Shown: piece by piece, positions 3,738 through 19,683 of the stretch
How the letters are laid out: every line of letters begins with the position of its first letter
How positions within the stretch are numbered: position 1 is the stretch's first letter
From: a virus
Virus record (IMG/VR): IMGVR_UViG_3300005529_000113
Span: 1 to 20,191 of that record
Length of the DNA: 20,191 nucleotides
Reading direction: 5' to 3' (one strand)
Program-made: the position numbers and the translations under genes
Notes under the pieces: generated by a model
What the model was told of the DNA's origin: nothing
Database searches by the model: none
The model's input: only the letters and a program-made list of their open reading frames with translations

Positions 3738-6026
3738 TCATTCGTCGTCGGGTCCCTTCGCGACCGCGATGGACACGCAGTGGCAATTGATCACGTTGTC
3801 GGGCGAGCCGTCGCTGTCTCCGGGATAATCTAGCTCCTCGCCTTCGACGACGAAGGGCTCATCGGCCGGGACCGTCTGGCCCTCCGCCTCGAGATGCGCG
3901 GGCCGGACGTTGGCGTTTCCGCTCGTCAGCCATTGCTTCCATTTCACGCCGGCGAAGAGCATCGCCTCATGCCGGCCGGCGCCATAGGCCGCGCTCGTCT
4001 CGGTCGCCGCGATCGTGCGCGCCCGCCCGTCGGAAATGTCGTTGAAGGCGCCTTTCACACGCGTTGCAAGCTGGTCTGCTGTGTCTCCGCCATCGAGGCC
4101 CTCGCTCAGGGTCTCCTTGATATTGTCGAAGACCTCGTCAGGCACGCCACCCAGCCGGTTTTCGCGCTTGTCGATGAAATCTTTCACCGCGGCCGGCGGA
4201 TATTTGAAGACATCATCCTTCTTCCCAACCTCCTCCAGGAGCTGCTGGCCTGCCGTGTCGAGCGAGATCGAGGCCTGTTTGCGCATCGCGGCGAAAAACC
4301 GGTTCGCAAAATTGTGCTTATTGAAGACCAGGTCCGCGGCGGCCGTGCGCGTGACCGGCTTGGCGGACGATTTTCCGGCCGTGACATCGATCAAGGTCGC
4401 ATGGGCCTCGATTTTGCGCAGGGTCTCGATCCTGGCCGCCATCAGCTCGCGGTTGATCCGGCTCTCGTATTGCTTCATCGTCGAGCGCCGCTTCGAGACG
4501 TGATCCTTCCATCGAGCGATGCGCTGGGGATCGCGGGCGCGGGTCGAGACCGGTGCACCATGGCAGGTGCAGACGAAGAACCGAAATTCATCCTTTTCCC
4601 CAGGTGAGGGCAAGGCCGGCGCCGGCTCGACCGGAACCGCATGGGAGTTGCGGATGCGCGCCGCGACGAGCGCCTTGAGGACTGCGATCTCCGGCCGCAG
4701 GGGAATCTTGCCATCGGCCTCTTCCGCCGGCGTCTCAGCCAGCGATGGATCGGTGATAGGCGAGGTCGCATTCTCGACCGGCCCGACCGTGAACGAGACA
4801 TAGGGGATATCCCAGCCCTTGAAAGGCTGCATCCCGAGATCGAGATAGGAATTGATGTCGCTCCAGGCCATGCCCGAGCCCCAAAGCTTGAGCGCGGTGT
4901 CGATGCGGCCATTGCGCACTTCGACCATGACGGGATGATCATCCCATTCCAGCTCGGCGGTAAGCATGGCTCCGGTCATCCGCATGGCCACGGCCGCAAG
5001 CACGCTGGCGATCTGGCTACCGAGCGGCATGCAGGTGCGGATTACAAGCTGGTAATAGTCGCTGTCCTTCCCCATCGAATAGCTCGCCTTCACCTCGGCC
5101 ATCGAAGGCGGAACGCCAAAGGCCACGAAAATCTCCTGGTGCGAGAGCGCCTTGCTCGCGATGACATCGGTGCCCGCCGCCTGCTCAACCGGCCGCTCGA
5201 CTGAGATGTCGCCGGTGAGGAACAAATCCTTGGCAACGCCCATGTGCAGCGCGCGACGCTTTTCCCGCAGGTCGGCCACGATCTGCTCGCGCTGCTCGTT
5301 GGAGGCGATGCCGTTTTTGCCAATGACGAGCATGCCTTGGTCGCCATTGTTGCGCATCAGGTCGCGGATATAGGTGCCGGTCAGGAACGCCCCCTCGGTC
5401 GCCACCCTGGCCGCCTTGTAATCGCCCAGGCCGCGCCATTCGTCATAAGGATTGAAGGCCTTCCAATGGATGACCTGGTCGGGCAGAAAGATTGTATGCC
5501 TGCCCTGCTGATCGGTATATTCATAGCCCTGGAGCTGGCCGCTGCTGACGATCAGCCGCATATGATCCGGCCGGGCGATGAAGAACGGTGTCAACATGGC
5601 TGGGTTCCGGCGCATGCCGGAGAGCGCCCAGCTATCATCGAAGCAGAGGAAAAACTCACCCTCCAGCTTGGCCCAGCTCGCCAGATCGCGGATCACCTCC
5701 TGGCGGCTCAGGCGCGGCTGCTGGGCGCCCGATATCTTCGGCCCGAGTGCCGGCGCTTCCCACCAGGCGTCAAAGGCCGGATTGGAGAAAGGCTGCTCGC
5801 CCTCATAGAAACAAAGCCGGCGCGAGACCAATTCGCCGGCGATATGGTTGATCGCCGCATGCACCCAGGCGGATTGCTGGAAAGGCCAGGTGAGATGATT
5901 GGCCCGGTTGGAATAGAGATCCTCCCCGTGGATAAAGGCGCTCGCCAGGGCGGTGAAGGTCTTGGTCTTGGCCAGGCGGCCAAAGGCCGAGGAAACGACC
6001 GGAGGGACAAAATCGCGTAATTTCAT
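3738..6026 (-). CDS. Portal protein fused to MuF-type minor head protein
   Basis: This is one continuous 762-residue frame with two phage modules. Residues ~30-420 are an HK97-type portal: WPFQQSAWVHAAINHIAGEL near the start, DQVIHWKAFNPYDEWRGLGD at ~183-202, and ALSHQEIFVAFGVPPSMAEV at ~293-312, the usual portal signature. After a proline-rich linker (~440-480), residues ~500-760 form a MuF/SPP1-gp7-like domain, with ARTIAATETSAAYGAGR at ~669-685, VRPAHLEAEGQTVP at ~707-720 and NVINCHC at ~744-750. The portal is the DNA entry ring at the head vertex; MuF proteins are minor internal head proteins. In Mu these are separate genes (gp29 and gp30). A clear GGGAGGG ribosome site lies seven bases before the ATG, one of the few strong ones here. 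Confidence 0.9.
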   Translation of the reverse strand: MKLRDFVPPVVSSAFGRLAKTKTFTALASAFIHGEDLYSNRANHLTWPFQQSAWVHAAINHIAGELVSRRLCFYEGEQPFSNPAFDAWWEAPALGPKISGAQQPRLSRQEVIRDLASWAKLEGEFFLCFDDSWALSGMRRNPAMLTPFFIARPDHMRLIVSSGQLQGYEYTDQQGRHTIFLPDQVIHWKAFNPYDEWRGLGDYKAARVATEGAFLTGTYIRDLMRNNGDQGMLVIGKNGIASNEQREQIVADLREKRRALHMGVAKDLFLTGDISVERPVEQAAGTDVIASKALSHQEIFVAFGVPPSMAEVKASYSMGKDSDYYQLVIRTCMPLGSQIASVLAAVAMRMTGAMLTAELEWDDHPVMVEVRNGRIDTALKLWGSGMAWSDINSYLDLGMQPFKGWDIPYVSFTVGPVENATSPITDPSLAETPAEEADGKIPLRPEIAVLKALVAARIRNSHAVPVEPAPALPSPGEKDEFRFFVCTCHGAPVSTRARDPQRIARWKDHVSKRRSTMKQYESRINRELMAARIETLRKIEAHATLIDVTAGKSSAKPVTRTAAADLVFNKHNFANRFFAAMRKQASISLDTAGQQLLEEVGKKDDVFKYPPAAVKDFIDKRENRLGGVPDEVFDNIKETLSEGLDGGDTADQLATRVKGAFNDISDGRARTIAATETSAAYGAGRHEAMLFAGVKWKQWLTSGNANVRPAHLEAEGQTVPADEPFVVEGEELDYPGDSDGSPDNVINCHCVSIAVAKGPDDE

Positions 6027-9969: not shown

Positions 9970-10257
9970 TTATAGGCGTTCGGAGAGAATACGGCCCGAT
10001 TGCTTCGCCAGATTTTTCGAGAAGGAGAAACGAAAGCTGATCCCTTCCCGCGTGGTGATGGTCAGCAAGGCGATCTTTTCGTCCTGGGAACTATGCTGCA
10101 CTCCGATGCTCGTCGCCTCGAAGTTCCGCACCGGGAGACCGCGGACGGAGGATTTGGCCGCCGCGTCTATGCAATCCAGCAAATGATTGACGCGCTGGGC
10201 GCGATCATCGCCATTTGACGGATTCAGTTCATTGATGGCTGGATTCTTTGCTGGCAT
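9970..10257 (-). CDS. Unrecognised protein, first gene of the late operon
   Basis: This 95-residue protein begins MPAKNPAINELNPSNGDDRA. I chose the ATG at 10257; the frame is open to an earlier ATG at 10290, but that version would cover an inverted repeat and crowd the terminator at 10300. A helix (AQRVNHLLDCIDAAAKSS) is followed by beta-like strands (EKIALLTITTREGISFRFSF). It has no membrane segment, signal peptide or catalytic motif known to me and does not resemble an endolysin. Position suggests an early-late regulator or a structural accessory, but there is no evidence for either. Confidence 0.6.
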   Translation of the reverse strand: MPAKNPAINELNPSNGDDRAQRVNHLLDCIDAAAKSSVRGLPVRNFEATSIGVQHSSQDEKIALLTITTREGISFRFSFSKNLAKQSGRILSERL

Positions 10258-10299: not shown

Positions 10300-10331
10300 A
10301 AAAAAAATCCCACCGTTAGAGTACGGTGGGA
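10300..10331 (-). terminator. Intrinsic terminator of the repressor-moron transcript
   Basis: On the minus strand, a perfect 9-bp stem (TCCCACCGT with ACGGTGGGA) around a 6-base loop is followed by eight T. It lies 25 bases past the stop of the moron gene and insulates the late operon from lysogenic transcription. Confidence 0.9.
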
Positions 10332-10356: not shown

Positions 10357-11022
10357 TTAATTAGCCGTTTGTTCTACCTCTATCTCCCAGTCGCAGTTGA
10401 GGGCGTTGATTTTCAAATCGAATGTACCTGCGCCATGCCCATAACTAATCTCATCCCCAGCTTGTCCGGTATTAACCAATAGATCATCTGAGGCGCCTTC
10501 GCTCATCACATTTAAAAAAGAAAAAACGGCCGCATCACGCGGATGCATTTGCCAATGGATTCTCCAAGAGTCGCTGGTGACCTGGAAGGAAGGAGACCTC
10601 TGTGTTCCTGCACCATTGAAATGAGCGAGTGAGACCCACCGTTCGGTTTTTGGGGTAATTGGATAAACCGCAGGAGACTGACTGGGTTGCTCACTGAGGG
10701 TCTCACTGCGAGTATTTGCTTTTTCCAATTTTGACCGCAGATCATCGTTTTCAGATTTCAAGCGGCTGATCACATCATTTGAATCCTCAGCCATCCTCGC
10801 CTCGTTCTCTTTGGTCTTCTGAACCAAGATAGCTTCGGCCTTCGATTGATTAGCTACAGCCTGTAGCTGAGTTTGAAGATGACCGACCTCGACAACTATA
10901 TCTGACAGTTGTTTCTCCTCGGAAACAGATGCGTTTATCAGCTTCTGATTCTTCGAAAACTGCCAAATGTTTCCAGCGATGCTTACCAGCAATAAGGCCG
11001 ATAGAATGTAAATTTTTCTCAT
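10357..11022 (-). CDS. Membrane-anchored moron-like protein with C-terminal beta domain
   Basis: This 221-residue protein starts MRKIYILSALLLVSIAGNIW, an N-terminal membrane anchor or uncleaved signal (~4-22). A coiled-coil region (~35-108) and a short Ser/Pro linker follow. The C-terminal domain (~128-219) is beta-like, with a repeating 'x-F-x-V-x-S-D-S-W-R-I-x-W' and ending NALNCDWEIEVEQ, a Trp-rich ending seen in small secreted sandwich domains. The gene is visibly AT-richer than the phage modules, uses different codons, lies 11 bases after the repressor and is closed by its own terminator. This is the arrangement of a lysogenic-conversion gene expressed from the prophage. A role at the cell envelope, such as exclusion of other phages, is a reasonable inference but not shown. 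Confidence 0.75.
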   Translation of the reverse strand: MRKIYILSALLLVSIAGNIWQFSKNQKLINASVSEEKQLSDIVVEVGHLQTQLQAVANQSKAEAILVQKTKENEARMAEDSNDVISRLKSENDDLRSKLEKANTRSETLSEQPSQSPAVYPITPKTERWVSLAHFNGAGTQRSPSFQVTSDSWRIHWQMHPRDAAVFSFLNVMSEGASDDLLVNTGQAGDEISYGHGAGTFDLKINALNCDWEIEVEQTAN

Positions 11023-11033
11023 CGTTTAAAGCG

Positions 11034-11375
11034 TTAGTATTTTTCGATTTCCTTCTCTAGTGCTTTCGTGACATCGACCAACTGTTTGACCAATCTTCGT
11101 ATCTCTGAGGATAGATGCGGTTGTCGATCCTCATTGAGAATCAGTGCGGTATTTTCCTCACCCATTAATAGGTATTCCATCCTAATCCTGAGAACCTTGG
11201 AAAGCTTATAAAGAGCATCTCCTCGGGGGATAGAACCGTTGAGCCAACCGCTTACGGTGGCCTGTGAGGAATTGGTTGCATCCGCGATTTGTGCCTGCGT
11301 GAAGCCCTGCTCCTTCATCTCGCGATCGAGAGTTTGAGCAAATATCGTTTTTCCGATATTTTTGTCTTGATTCAT
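11034..11375 (-). CDS. XRE-family phage repressor
   Basis: This 113-residue protein has a lambda-repressor-like domain at ~10-72. The helix-turn-helix is FTQAQIADATNSSQATVSGW (~25-44), followed by the usual helix DALYKLSKVLRIRMEYLLMG. The C-terminal part (SSEIRRLVKQLVDVTKALEK) looks like a dimerising helix; there is no peptidase domain, so this is not a LexA/CI self-cleaving type. It is read away from the early operon, with the control region between, as expected for the lysogeny repressor. Both this gene and the following moron are AT-richer than the rest. Regulation by binding its own inverted repeats is likely. The start has GGAAAA seven to eight bases upstream. Confidence 0.88.
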   Translation of the reverse strand: MNQDKNIGKTIFAQTLDREMKEQGFTQAQIADATNSSQATVSGWLNGSIPRGDALYKLSKVLRIRMEYLLMGEENTALILNEDRQPHLSSEIRRLVKQLVDVTKALEKEIEKY

Positions 11376-11414
11376 CGGTTTTCCGTTATCACAAAGGTGA
11401 TGTTACGGGTAACA
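11340..11414. promoter_or_regulatory. Divergent control region with three inverted repeats (operator candidates)
   Basis: Three dyads lie over the start of the repressor gene and the gap to the first early gene: AAATATCG facing CGATATTT (11340-11361, 6-base spacer), ATCAC facing GTGAT (11388-11401, 4-base spacer) and TGTTAC facing GTAACA (11401-11414, 2-base spacer). The last two abut. These are the natural operators for the repressor and the Ner-like protein. Consensus -10/-35 boxes could not be assigned with confidence on either strand. Confidence 0.55.
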
Positions 11415-11417
11415 ACG

Positions 11418-11606
11418 ATGCAAAAGAAAGGCAAAACCACCACCGCCGGATCGGGGCGCACCAAGTTTCACGGGATTGTTGAACAAGCCGGGCAGCTGCG
11501 TGTGAGCCGTGGGCATCTCTGGCAAGTCCTCACCGGCCGTCGGCAGAGCAAGGTTTTGCTTCAGCGCTATCTGAAACTCACCCGCAACAGGAAATTCCAG
11601 CCATGA
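11418..11606 (+). CDS. Small Ner/Cro-like HTH protein, first early gene
   Basis: This 62-residue basic protein begins MQKKGKTTTAGSGRTKFHGI. Residues ~18-52 read as a helix-turn-helix: VEQAGQLRVSRGHLWQVLTG, the 'L-x-V-S-R-x-H-L-x-x-V-L-x-G-R-R' pattern of small XRE regulators. As the first gene opposite the repressor it holds the place of Mu Ner or lambda Cro, which turn early and repressor transcription down during lytic growth. An ATG at 11400 would add six residues but sits inside the operator dyad, so 11418 is preferred. It is not certain which is used. The stop overlaps the next start (ATGA). Confidence 0.6.
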   Translation: MQKKGKTTTAGSGRTKFHGIVEQAGQLRVSRGHLWQVLTGRRQSKVLLQRYLKLTRNRKFQP

Positions 11607-15495: not shown

Positions 15496-16593
15496 ATGAC
15501 TGACGAAAACAAAACCGAAGCTGCTGCTTCGTCCTCCGCTCGCGGCGTCAAGGGCGCCGAGATCGCGACGGCCGCCAGCGCCCACGCCCGGCTCAACATC
15601 CCGCTCAACCTTCAAAACTGGCGCGCGCTGCCCGCCGATCTCCAGGCGCTCCTGCTCTGGTTTCACCAGCACTGCCTCGACGAGGGGCTCAGCCTCAAGG
15701 AGGCCGGCGAGGCGCTCGGCTACGACACCAGCACGGTCTGGCGCATCCTCAAGGGCACCTACGAGGGCTCCTGGCCGAACACCGCCGCGCGGATCAAGAG
15801 CTACCAGCGCATCGCCAACGATCGTTCCGGCATCCAGCGCGCCAACTTCGCCGAGAACAGCATCTCTCGGCTTATCTGGGCCGGCCTCGACTATGCTGTC
15901 GCGAATAATTCCCTCACGCTCGTCGTCGGCGAGAGCGGCCAGGGCAAGACCCTCGCCGCCGAGGCCTGGCGCGACCGCAATAATCACGGCCGCAGCGTCA
16001 TGGTCGAAGTCCCCCCGATCGGTGGTGCCAAGATGCTCCTGCGCTGCATCGCCGATGCAGTCGGCGTGAACAAGAACCTCGCACAGGACCAGATGCTCGA
16101 AGCCATCATCCGCGCCTTCAATCCCAACCGCATCCTCATCCTCGACGAGGCCCGTCGCCTTCTTCCCGGCGATACCCGCGGCGACGTCAATCCGGTTAAG
16201 CTGGAGATAATCCGCTACATTCACGACCGCACGAAATGCGCCGTCGCCCTGATCGCCACGCAGCGCTTCGACGACACGCTCAAGAAGCTCAGCTACCAAT
16301 ATGAGCAGATTCTCGGGCGCATCGGCCAGCCCGTGCGGCTTTTCCGCCGCATCGAGCTGAAGGATGTCCTTCCGATCCTCGGCCAGTATTTCAAGAAGCC
16401 CTCGCAGAGCCTTCTCGATGCGGCCGCGCAGATCGTCAACGAGCAGGGGCGCCTCCGCGTGCTCTGCGAGCTCCTCAAGGTCGCCACGCGGATTTCAAGC
16501 AAGCACCGCCAGGACCTCTCCGAGGAGCACTTTTTCAAGGCCGTCGCCCTTCGCCGGCAGATGATGGGCGAGGTCTTCCACGCCGCCAAATAA
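15496..16593 (+). CDS. MuB-type AAA ATPase, transposition target protein
   Basis: This 365-residue protein has an N-terminal disordered Ala/Ser-rich part and a helix-turn-helix at ~64-88 (GLSLKEAGEALGYDTSTVWR), as in MuB. The AAA core carries Walker A GESGQGKT (145-152), Walker B RILILDEA (212-219) and a sensor-like strand ALIATQRF (~251-258). The C-terminal helical domain is basic. MuB polymerises on target DNA, delivers it to the transposase and gives target immunity; this protein should do the same. An AAGGACC stretch lies nine bases before the ATG. It is the partner of the gene just upstream, and together they define the phage as transposable. Confidence 0.93.
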   Translation: MTDENKTEAAASSSARGVKGAEIATAASAHARLNIPLNLQNWRALPADLQALLLWFHQHCLDEGLSLKEAGEALGYDTSTVWRILKGTYEGSWPNTAARIKSYQRIANDRSGIQRANFAENSISRLIWAGLDYAVANNSLTLVVGESGQGKTLAAEAWRDRNNHGRSVMVEVPPIGGAKMLLRCIADAVGVNKNLAQDQMLEAIIRAFNPNRILILDEARRLLPGDTRGDVNPVKLEIIRYIHDRTKCAVALIATQRFDDTLKKLSYQYEQILGRIGQPVRLFRRIELKDVLPILGQYFKKPSQSLLDAAAQIVNEQGRLRVLCELLKVATRISSKHRQDLSEEHFFKAVALRRQMMGEVFHAAK

Positions 16594-17905: not shown

Positions 17906-18619
17906 ATGAGTCTGCAACCAGCCATTCTCAGCGCCTGCCGGCTCACCGCCGACAAGGTCCGTTCACTCACCGGGCAGAGCGATGCAATGGCTATTAAAAT
18001 GGACAAGCAGGCGATAGCGGCCCTGCGCGTGACCGCCAATTCGCTGTCCAGCTCGATCGCCACCTTCGACAAAAACGAAAAGCAGAGACGCGAATCGCTG
18101 CGTCGAATGATCGAACTCCGGACCGAGGAGGAATCACGTCTCTCGCTCAGTCTTCACAATGCGGTCGCCCAAGTCATTACGGCGATCGCTTCGCTCGATG
18201 CCATCCTCAAGGATTCCATCTCGGGCATCCGGCCGGTCGCCTGCAACCTGTCGGATGTCAACGCGGACCGCATCGTCACGGTTCAGAAAATTTGCGCCGA
18301 CGCCTTCGGTATCGAATTGGCCGAGCTTCAATCCCGGATACGCTCCATGCCTTACGCGCGCGCCCGGCAATGCGCAATGGTGATCCTCTGCCGCCATACA
18401 AGGCTGACAACCGTGACCATCGGCAACGCCTTCGGCGGCTTCGATCATGGCACGGTTACGCATGCCAAGCGCACCATCGAGGAGCAATGCCTGACTGATC
18501 CGGCATTCAGGGATTTATTCGCGAAAATCGAGCTTCGCTGTCTGGAGGCGCTTAACGCAGAGCCGTCATCTGGCGCCGAAGAAAATTCACCGCGGCCTGA
18601 AGAGGATACTACTCGATGA
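17906..18619 (+). CDS. Protein with C-terminal DnaA domain IV
   Basis: This 237-residue protein has an N-terminal ~120 residues that are helical (coiled-coil-like, with EKQRRESLRRMIELRTEEES). Residues ~128-208 match the DnaA C-terminal DNA-binding domain: ICADAFGIELAELQSRIRSM, YARARQCAMVILCRHTRLTT and IGNAFGGFDHGTVTHAKRTI, whose last part is the classic DnaA-box recognition helix (G-x-x-F-G-G-R-D-H-T-T-V-x-H-A). There is no AAA ATPase module, so it cannot act as a full initiator; it may bind DnaA boxes on the phage or host and compete with or recruit DnaA. A good GGGGGAG ribosome site precedes the ATG by seven bases. The Gly-Phe-Asp-His reading replaces the usual Gly-Arg-Asp-His. The stop overlaps the DUF5131 start. 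Confidence 0.85.
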   Translation: MSLQPAILSACRLTADKVRSLTGQSDAMAIKMDKQAIAALRVTANSLSSSIATFDKNEKQRRESLRRMIELRTEEESRLSLSLHNAVAQVITAIASLDAILKDSISGIRPVACNLSDVNADRIVTVQKICADAFGIELAELQSRIRSMPYARARQCAMVILCRHTRLTTVTIGNAFGGFDHGTVTHAKRTIEEQCLTDPAFRDLFAKIELRCLEALNAEPSSGAEENSPRPEEDTTR

Positions 18620-19683
18620 AAAATTCTAAAATCGAGTGGTGTGATCATACCTTCAACCCGTGGATCGGCTGCACGAAGGTCTCCCCTGGTTGCCTGCATT
18701 GCTACGCCGAGAGCCTCAATCTCCGCTGGAGGAAAGGCGCCAACTGGGGCAAGGGCGCGACGCGGGAGAGGACGAGCGAGGCATATTGGAAAGAGCCGCT
18801 CCAATGGAATAAGGCGGCAGGGGAATCGGCACTATATGAAACGACCCCGGAAGGACTTAAAAAAATCCGTCCGCGTGTCTTCTGTGCCTCGCTTGCCGAT
18901 TGGCTGGACGGCGAGGTGTCGATCGAATGGCTGGTCGACCTGCTGGCCCTGATCCACCGGTGCAACAACCTAAACTGGCTATTGCTGACCAAGCGACCCG
19001 AGAACTGGAAGCCCCGGCTTGCTTTCGCTCTGAATAACTTGACGACCTCTCAACAGGCCTCACCTGAAAACTTCCGCTTCATACAATGGATCGAGGCATG
19101 GCTCAACGGAACCCCGCCGGAAAACGTCTGGGTCGGGACATCCGTCGAAGACCAGGCGCGCGTCAACCTGCGCGTGCCAGAGTTGCTCATGATCCCGGCG
19201 CGCGTGCGCTTCTTGAGTATCGAGCCAATGCTTGGGCCTATCGATCTTATGAAATGGTTTCACCCGAATGGACGTTGCGGAGAATGTCTCGATTTGATCC
19301 GCGTCGGGCGGGAATATGTGAGCTGCCAATGTTGCTGTGAGGGTCCAGAACAAACACTAACACGGACGGATTTAATCGACTGGGTCATCTGCGGCGGAGA
19401 GAGCGGGCCAGGAGCGCGGCCGATGCATCCAGACTGGGCGCGCTCACTGCGCGATCAATGCCAGGCTGCCGGCGTGCCGTTCTTCTTTAAGCAATGGGGG
19501 GAATGGATTCCTTGGTATCGCGGACTTGAAATCGGCAACCGGCAGCAAGCGTTCGTCATGGCCAATGCGTCGAGATATATCCCGGAAAATTTCTCTTCAC
19601 CGTTGGTGACGATGATCTGCGTCGGAAAAAAACAAGCCGGCCGCCTCCTCGACGGAGTCGAGTGGAATGAATTTCCCGTATGA
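18616..19683 (+). CDS. Phage Gp37/Gp68 family (DUF5131) cysteine-motif protein
   Basis: This 355-residue protein has the family's opening, IEWCDHTFNPWIGCTKVSPG then CLHCYAE, with Cys19-x6-Cys26-x2-Cys29 as the metal or iron-sulfur site. Further conserved parts are WLLLTKRPENW (~121-131), VWVGTSVEDQ (~171-180), FLSIEPMLGPID (~199-210) and WVICGGESGPGARPMHPDWA (~256-275). These proteins are common in phages, relate to radical-SAM-like folds, and sometimes accompany a TcmP partner; their reaction is not established. This copy also has an insert at ~218-242 with Cys221, 224, 237, 239, 240 and 241, which looks like a second metal site. The start and stop overlap neighbours by ATGA. No TcmP gene is visible in the window. 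Confidence 0.9.
   Translation: MKNSKIEWCDHTFNPWIGCTKVSPGCLHCYAESLNLRWRKGANWGKGATRERTSEAYWKEPLQWNKAAGESALYETTPEGLKKIRPRVFCASLADWLDGEVSIEWLVDLLALIHRCNNLNWLLLTKRPENWKPRLAFALNNLTTSQQASPENFRFIQWIEAWLNGTPPENVWVGTSVEDQARVNLRVPELLMIPARVRFLSIEPMLGPIDLMKWFHPNGRCGECLDLIRVGREYVSCQCCCEGPEQTLTRTDLIDWVICGGESGPGARPMHPDWARSLRDQCQAAGVPFFFKQWGEWIPWYRGLEIGNRQQAFVMANASRYIPENFSSPLVTMICVGKKQAGRLLDGVEWNEFPV

What the first reader, a model, noticed from the sequence alone, without database searches (positions are those of the whole stretch)
10357..11022. Putative lysogenic-conversion gene in the repressor transcript
An AT-richer membrane-anchored gene follows the repressor by 11 bases and is closed by a strong terminator before the late operon. 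It would be expressed in the lysogen. The anchor, coiled coil and Trp-rich beta domain suggest an envelope protein that could affect the host or block other phages.
Basis: partly seen in the sequence, partly recalled or inferred. Interest (0 to 1): 0.6.

Follow-up and report, generated by a model that had tools for sequence, protein, structure and literature searches.

The report
Repressor-linked prophage envelope cargo gene
A Mu-like virus of Verrucomicrobiota bacteria carries, right behind the gene that keeps it dormant, an extra gene for a membrane-anchored protein with a bacterial exported-type domain; related viruses carry different exported proteins at the same spot, so this looks like a swappable slot for genes that change the host's envelope, perhaps to keep rival viruses out.

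Summary
A 221-aa, 46% GC gene lies 11 bp behind an HTH repressor in a 61% GC Mu-like phage record, with a strong intrinsic terminator between it and the late operon. The protein has an N-terminal anchor, a coiled-coil stalk (helix 2-109) and a Trp-containing beta domain (128-219). That domain belongs to an exported family absent from Pfam: a profile of 30 Verrucomicrobiota chromosomal copies, built without this protein, finds it at E=1.4e-11, and nearly all those proteins carry a signal peptide. In 32 related phages with an identifiable repressor, the first ORF behind the repressor is predicted exported or membrane-bound in 27, against 15% of other genes. These ORFs are mostly unrelated to each other, average 8 GC points below core genes, and overlap the repressor by 4 bp in eight phages; similar repressors carry different cargo. 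Best reading: a swappable slot for envelope cargo on the repressor transcript. Expression in the lysogen is inferred, not shown. Superinfection exclusion is the likeliest function (about 0.4), by analogy with Ltp and Sie2009, which lie in lysogeny modules; one sibling slot holds an exported nuclease. A spanin role is unlikely.

The parts
11034..11375 (-). Repressor gene (HTH_3, 113 aa), first gene of the proposed operon
   Evidence: Pfam HTH_3 E=4e-12; PHROG transcriptional regulator
10357..11022 (-). Focal cargo gene, 221 aa membrane-anchored protein, 46% GC
10957..11013 (-). Codons 4-22: N-terminal hydrophobic anchor
   Evidence: hydropathy, helix in model
10696..10953 (-). Codons 24-109: long helix / coiled-coil stalk
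   Evidence: model pLDDT mostly about 80-95; weak Rz-like PHROG match
10366..10641 (-). Codons 128-219: Trp-containing beta domain shared with exported Verrucomicrobiota proteins
   Evidence: profile without this protein: E=1.1e-10, 1.4e-11
10300..10331 (-). Intrinsic terminator: 9-bp stem, 6-nt loop, T8
9970..10257 (-). First gene of the late operon, beyond the terminator (unknown function)
11418..11606 (+). Divergent short early ORF in the place of Ner (frame open from 11289; ATG at 11418)
   Evidence: position and sequence; similar short HTH-like ORFs lead the early arm in relatives
11340..11361 (.). Inverted repeat AAATATCG-CGATATTT, possible operator
   Evidence: function not tested
15496..16593 (+). 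MuB-type ATPase used to collect relatives
   Evidence: PHROG DNA transposition protein 1.6e-39

Best explanation
The gene is lysogenic-conversion cargo (a moron) in a swappable slot of the repressor operon of Verrucomicrobiota Mu-like phages. Step 1 (inferred from anatomy): the repressor promoter reads through repressor and cargo and stops at the terminator, so the cargo is made in the lysogen while the late operon stays off. Step 2 (predicted; export of the domain is supported by its relatives): the protein sits in the inner membrane by its N-terminus and holds a beta domain in the periplasm on a stalk of about 90 residues. Step 3 (shown by comparison): the domain is shared with exported bacterial proteins, so the gene was probably assembled from host-type material, and sibling phages hold other exported proteins in the same slot. 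Step 4 (inference, about 0.4): it most likely interferes with entry of competing phages at the envelope (superinfection exclusion); another change to the host envelope is the main alternative.
For: Repressor 11 bp upstream and terminator downstream. In 32 relatives the first ORF behind the repressor is exported or membrane-bound in 27, against 100/655 other genes and 70/234 same-strand genes (Fisher 1e-16 and 4e-9), holding over cut-offs. Only 5 related pairs among 41 cargo ORFs; 4-bp overlap of repressor and first cargo ORF in 8 phages. Cargo GC 8 points below core genes, 39/41 lower; terminator-like hairpins right downstream in 10/32 against 0.1 expected. Repressors of L017, L027, L080, L082 are clearly related but their cargo is not; L068 has an extra exported gene between its repressor and a zinc-ribbon TM gene that L069 has right behind its related repressor. 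Domain homology to signal-peptide-bearing chromosomal proteins. L015 slot: secreted staphylococcal-nuclease-like protein. Ltp and Sie2009 precedents in lysogeny modules.
Against: No expression data; no consensus promoter found (the sigma-70 consensus may not apply here). Five first-slot proteins look cytosolic (L009, L013, L027, L065, L077) and the membrane call for L081 is doubtful. Slots were assigned by hand and export by a hydropathy rule; relatives were not corrected for kinship. The repressor gene is as low in GC as the cargo, so GC does not single out the cargo. A terminator was recognised in only a third of relatives. No direct evidence of phage exclusion; no PADLOC match.
Confidence: 0.72

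Rival explanations
1. It is an Rz-like inner-membrane spanin used in late lysis: TM anchor plus periplasmic coiled coil, displaced from the lysis cassette.
For: PHROG phrog_89 (Rz-like spanin) at 5.7e-5 for the whole protein and 1.5e-5 for the N-terminal half; same predicted topology.
Against: Adjacent to the repressor and cut off from the late operon by a terminator; no lipobox ORF in or beside it; C-terminal domain has no PHROG match and is related to host exported proteins; the late operon has its own small TM genes.
Confidence: 0.08
2. Lysogen-expressed envelope protein that serves the host rather than blocking phages, e.g. stress resistance, adhesion or nutrient binding.
For: The domain comes from a chromosomal exported family of unknown function; sibling slots hold varied host-like proteins such as GYF_2-TM and zinc-ribbon-TM proteins.
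Against: The rapid turnover of slot contents and the nuclease in one slot fit phage competition at least as well; nothing decisive.
Confidence: 0.35
3. The gene is a partner of the repressor (signal-sensing or anti-repressor membrane protein that ties prophage induction to envelope stress).
For: Tight linkage to the repressor, with translational-overlap layout in several relatives; membrane location would allow envelope sensing.
Against: Slot proteins do not co-vary with repressors: closely related repressors have unrelated cargo and one cargo family occurs with different repressors.
Confidence: 0.08
4. Virion or other lytic-cycle protein.
For: It lies on the late-gene strand.
Against: No homologue in 14 related genomes or records or among the phage loci searched by profile; terminator between it and the late genes.
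Confidence: 0.04

Closest known systems
Ltp lipoprotein of Streptococcus thermophilus phage TP-J34 (PMC3952083)
   Same: Gene in the lysogeny module, transcribed in the prophage state; protein tethered outside the cytoplasmic membrane.
   Different: Lipoprotein of a phage of a Gram-positive host with shown block of DNA injection; here an N-terminal TM anchor, a stalk and a different domain, in a transposable phage.
Sie2009 of lactococcal phage Tuc2009 and related P335 phages (PMC7693887)
   Same: Small membrane-associated protein with hydrophobic N-terminus in the lysogeny module; contents of that position differ among phages.
   Different: Lies between repressor and integrase genes; exclusion shown by experiment.
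Morons / regions of genomic plasticity of Pseudomonas Mu-like phages (PMC4378225)
   Same: Accessory genes at fixed places in Mu-like phages; morons are described as having odd composition and sometimes prophage expression.
   Different: Those are mainly short ORFs (34-100 codons) in several regions; here one slot is tied to the repressor and filled mostly with exported proteins.
Rz-type i-spanins (phrog_89)
   Same: Inner-membrane anchor and periplasmic coiled coil.
   Different: Late lysis genes with a lipoprotein partner; here neither is seen and the C-terminal domain differs.
SNIPE membrane-bound nuclease (PMC13190303)
   Same: Membrane-localised defence acting on incoming phage DNA; a loose parallel for the exported nuclease in the L015 slot.
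   Different: No sequence relation to the focal gene was tested or is claimed.

Membership tests
Moron / lysogenic-conversion gene | Extra gene absent or replaced at the same place in related phages | tested here: met
   32 relatives, mostly with unrelated slot genes; no homologue of this gene among them
Moron / lysogenic-conversion gene | Base composition unlike neighbouring phage genes | tested here: met
   46% vs 61% GC; 39/41 cargo ORFs below core genes, though the repressors are too
Moron / lysogenic-conversion gene | Own promoter | tested here: inconclusive
   11-bp gap, no sigma-70-like site found; read as riding on the repressor promoter
Moron / lysogenic-conversion gene | Closed by a terminator | tested here: met
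Moron / lysogenic-conversion gene | Expressed from the repressed prophage | not testable with these tools
   needs RNA-seq of a lysogen
Lysogeny-module superinfection-exclusion protein (Ltp/Sie2009 kind) | Gene in the lysogeny module next to the repressor | tested here: met
Lysogeny-module superinfection-exclusion protein (Ltp/Sie2009 kind) | Membrane or lipid anchor | tested here: met
   predicted only
Lysogeny-module superinfection-exclusion protein (Ltp/Sie2009 kind) | Blocks DNA entry of other phages | not testable with these tools
   needs plating and DNA-entry assays
Lysogeny-module superinfection-exclusion protein (Ltp/Sie2009 kind) | Sequence homology to Ltp or Sie2009 | not tested
   no direct comparison made; no Pfam family passed its cut-off
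Rz-type i-spanin | N-terminal TM and periplasmic coiled coil | tested here: met
Rz-type i-spanin | Lipoprotein partner gene overlapping or adjacent | tested here: not met
   no lipobox ORF in or next to 10357-11022
Rz-type i-spanin | Lies in the lysis cassette / late operon | tested here: not met
   adjacent to the repressor, separated from the late operon by the terminator
Verrucomicrobiota exported Trp-containing beta domain (unnamed) | Match to a profile made without this protein | tested here: met
   E=1.1e-10 and 1.4e-11
Verrucomicrobiota exported Trp-containing beta domain (unnamed) | Signal peptide and two tandem domains, as in chromosomal members | tested here: not met
   here one domain on a TM-coil anchor, so it shares the domain, not the whole architecture; a Bacillota relative is also single and TM-anchored

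The most novel reading that the evidence does not exclude
Mu-like phages across the phylum Verrucomicrobiota keep a dedicated exchange slot on the repressor transcript that selects for exported proteins; each lysogen thus displays a different envelope factor, many of them unknown exclusion systems, and the protein here is a new class that presents a borrowed bacterial exported domain on a membrane stalk.
Probability: 0.4. Interest if true: 0.7.

Novelty: new variant of a known kind. Interest (0 to 1): 0.5.

Why it matters
If true, the position behind the repressor predicts envelope-acting prophage genes without any homology, and gives a ready list of about 40 untested candidates for phage exclusion or host-surface change in a phylum with few phage studies. 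It also defines an exported domain family, not in Pfam, shared by bacteria and a phage.

Tried and rejected
Pfam on the whole protein gave only weak matches below cut-off. PDB sequence searches found only apolipoprotein E-type coil matches, fimbrial fragments and designed Ig proteins, none convincing. The plasmid search gave TraB coil matches plus one Bacillota relative of the domain, confirmed by profile. AlphaFold without an alignment gave a confident helix but a poor beta domain, so the fold search was uninformative and no fold is claimed; homologues from the genome search were not handed to the predictor because its stated rule does not list them. A codon-trained gene caller missed repressor and cargo because of their odd composition, so a combined score was used. 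L014, L016, L070 and L079 were left out of the count: no clear repressor or slot. PADLOC gave nothing for the focal protein.

Full report
What the record is. The window is a whole IMG/VR virus record of 20,191 bases, probably a fragment. It carries a MuA-type transposase and a MuB-type ATPase, a weak Mu Gam-like match, terminase and a portal fused to a Mu gpF-like domain. The closest MuB relatives in bacterial genomes all come from records named Verrucomicrobia, Kiritimatiellae, Opitutaceae, Oleiharenicola, Akkermansiaceae, Chthoniobacterales or Limisphaerales, so the host is very probably a Verrucomicrobiota bacterium. Early genes run on the + strand; repressor and late genes run on the - strand.

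The observation. The ORF 10357-11022 (-) has 221 codons, starts 11 bases after the stop of an HTH_3 repressor (11034-11375, -), has 46% GC in a 61% GC record, and is followed by a perfect 9-bp hairpin with a T8 tail at 10331-10308 (fold energy z = -3.3). A stop-free run this long occurs in 1 of 3000 dinucleotide shuffles of the region. All stated features are there.

The protein. A single-sequence AlphaFold model gives one long, mostly confident helix over residues 2-109, including the hydrophobic N-terminus, and an unreliable beta-rich C-terminus. The C-terminal part is not in Pfam. Searching 388 genomes of the phylum with residues 112-221 found matches in 7; an alignment of these found 26. 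Profiles built without the phage protein return it at E=1.1e-10 (7 sequences) and 1.4e-11 (30 domains), at residues 128-219; the chromosomal copies were first found with the phage protein as query, so the two E-values are slightly favoured. Invariant columns in the 8-sequence alignment are W4, G12, G14, F21, W87 and Q93. Nearly all chromosomal proteins have a signal-peptide-like start just before the first of two tandem domains (read by eye). A Bacillota plasmid ORF has one domain behind a TM segment. So the domain is an extracytoplasmic module, and a periplasmic C-terminus is the natural topology here.

The slot. MuB relatives were collected from viral contigs and genomes, genes were called, and repressor and slot were assigned by hand for 32 loci, the window included. 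The first ORF behind the repressor is predicted exported, lipidated or membrane-bound in 27 of 32 (16 of 20 in the closer set), against 100 of 655 other genes and 70 of 234 same-strand genes. A rule using N-terminal hydropathy alone gives the same direction at every cut-off from 1.8 to 2.6, though at the strictest it is weak against same-strand genes (p = 0.0085). Of the five first ORFs that look cytosolic, three (L013, L027, L065) have an exported gene next in line. The 41 cargo ORFs show only five related pairs, some perhaps only by coiled coil or TM segment. In eight phages the repressor and first cargo ORF overlap by 4 bp. Cargo averages 8 GC points below core genes (39/41), but so do the repressors, so low GC marks the region rather than the cargo alone; terminator-like hairpins follow the last cargo gene in 10/32 against 0.1 expected. 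Four phages with clearly related repressors (L017, L027, L080, L082) carry unrelated cargo; L010 and L021 share a cargo family under different repressors; L068 and L069 differ by one exported gene right behind closely related repressors. One cargo (L015) is an exported SNase-like nuclease; a GYF_2 protein with a TM segment lies in L014, outside the count; the L025 cargo has distant chromosomal relatives.

Mechanism. Shown: anatomy, domain homology, slot variability. Inferred: cotranscription with the repressor and hence expression in the lysogen; periplasmic display; benefit to the prophage by an envelope change. The most likely benefit is exclusion of other phages, because membrane or lipoprotein genes in lysogeny modules have that role where tested (Ltp, PMC3952083; Sie2009, PMC7693887) and because an exported nuclease sits in a sibling slot. 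I give that step about 0.4 and the broader cargo reading 0.72.

Rivals. The Rz-like PHROG match (1.5e-5 on the N-terminal half) reflects a TM-coil layout; gene position, terminator, missing lipoprotein partner and C-terminal domain speak against a spanin. A structural role is unlikely because the gene is missing from the relatives searched. A regulatory partner of the repressor is unlikely because cargo and repressor do not co-vary.

Limits. No expression data, no host strain, hand-assigned slots, a simple hydropathy rule for export, relatives not corrected for kinship, no reliable model of the beta domain, and no paper on this phage group found in the held library, which misses many journals.

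Noticed in passing
L019:3551-4198; L028:1575-2324; L018:2311-2922; L009:2786-3430: Late regions of several relatives encode alpha/beta hydrolases or a class 3 lipase (DUF900, Lipase_3; the L009 ORF had no Pfam match and is only similar by eye) where Mu has its endolysin; no endolysin was recognised in the window's late operon.
   Followed up: partly
window 18616-19683: DUF5131 (phage Gp37/Gp68-like) gene at E=1.3e-85 in the early arm; a gene of similar sequence start is in L006 (11263-12327).
   Followed up: no
window 3738-6026: Portal protein fused to a Mu gpF-like domain in one 762-aa ORF.
   Followed up: no
L077:9374-10102: The slot ORF of this prophage looks by eye like a MuA N-terminal fragment, at 42% GC in a 67% GC locus.
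   Followed up: no
L121:1501-1743 (NZ_CP116888.1): Unannotated Bacillota plasmid ORF with a TM segment and one copy of the same beta domain, next to an HTH regulator gene.
   Followed up: partly
window 11340-11361 and 11388-11401: Two small dyads near the divergent control region that could be operators.
   Followed up: no
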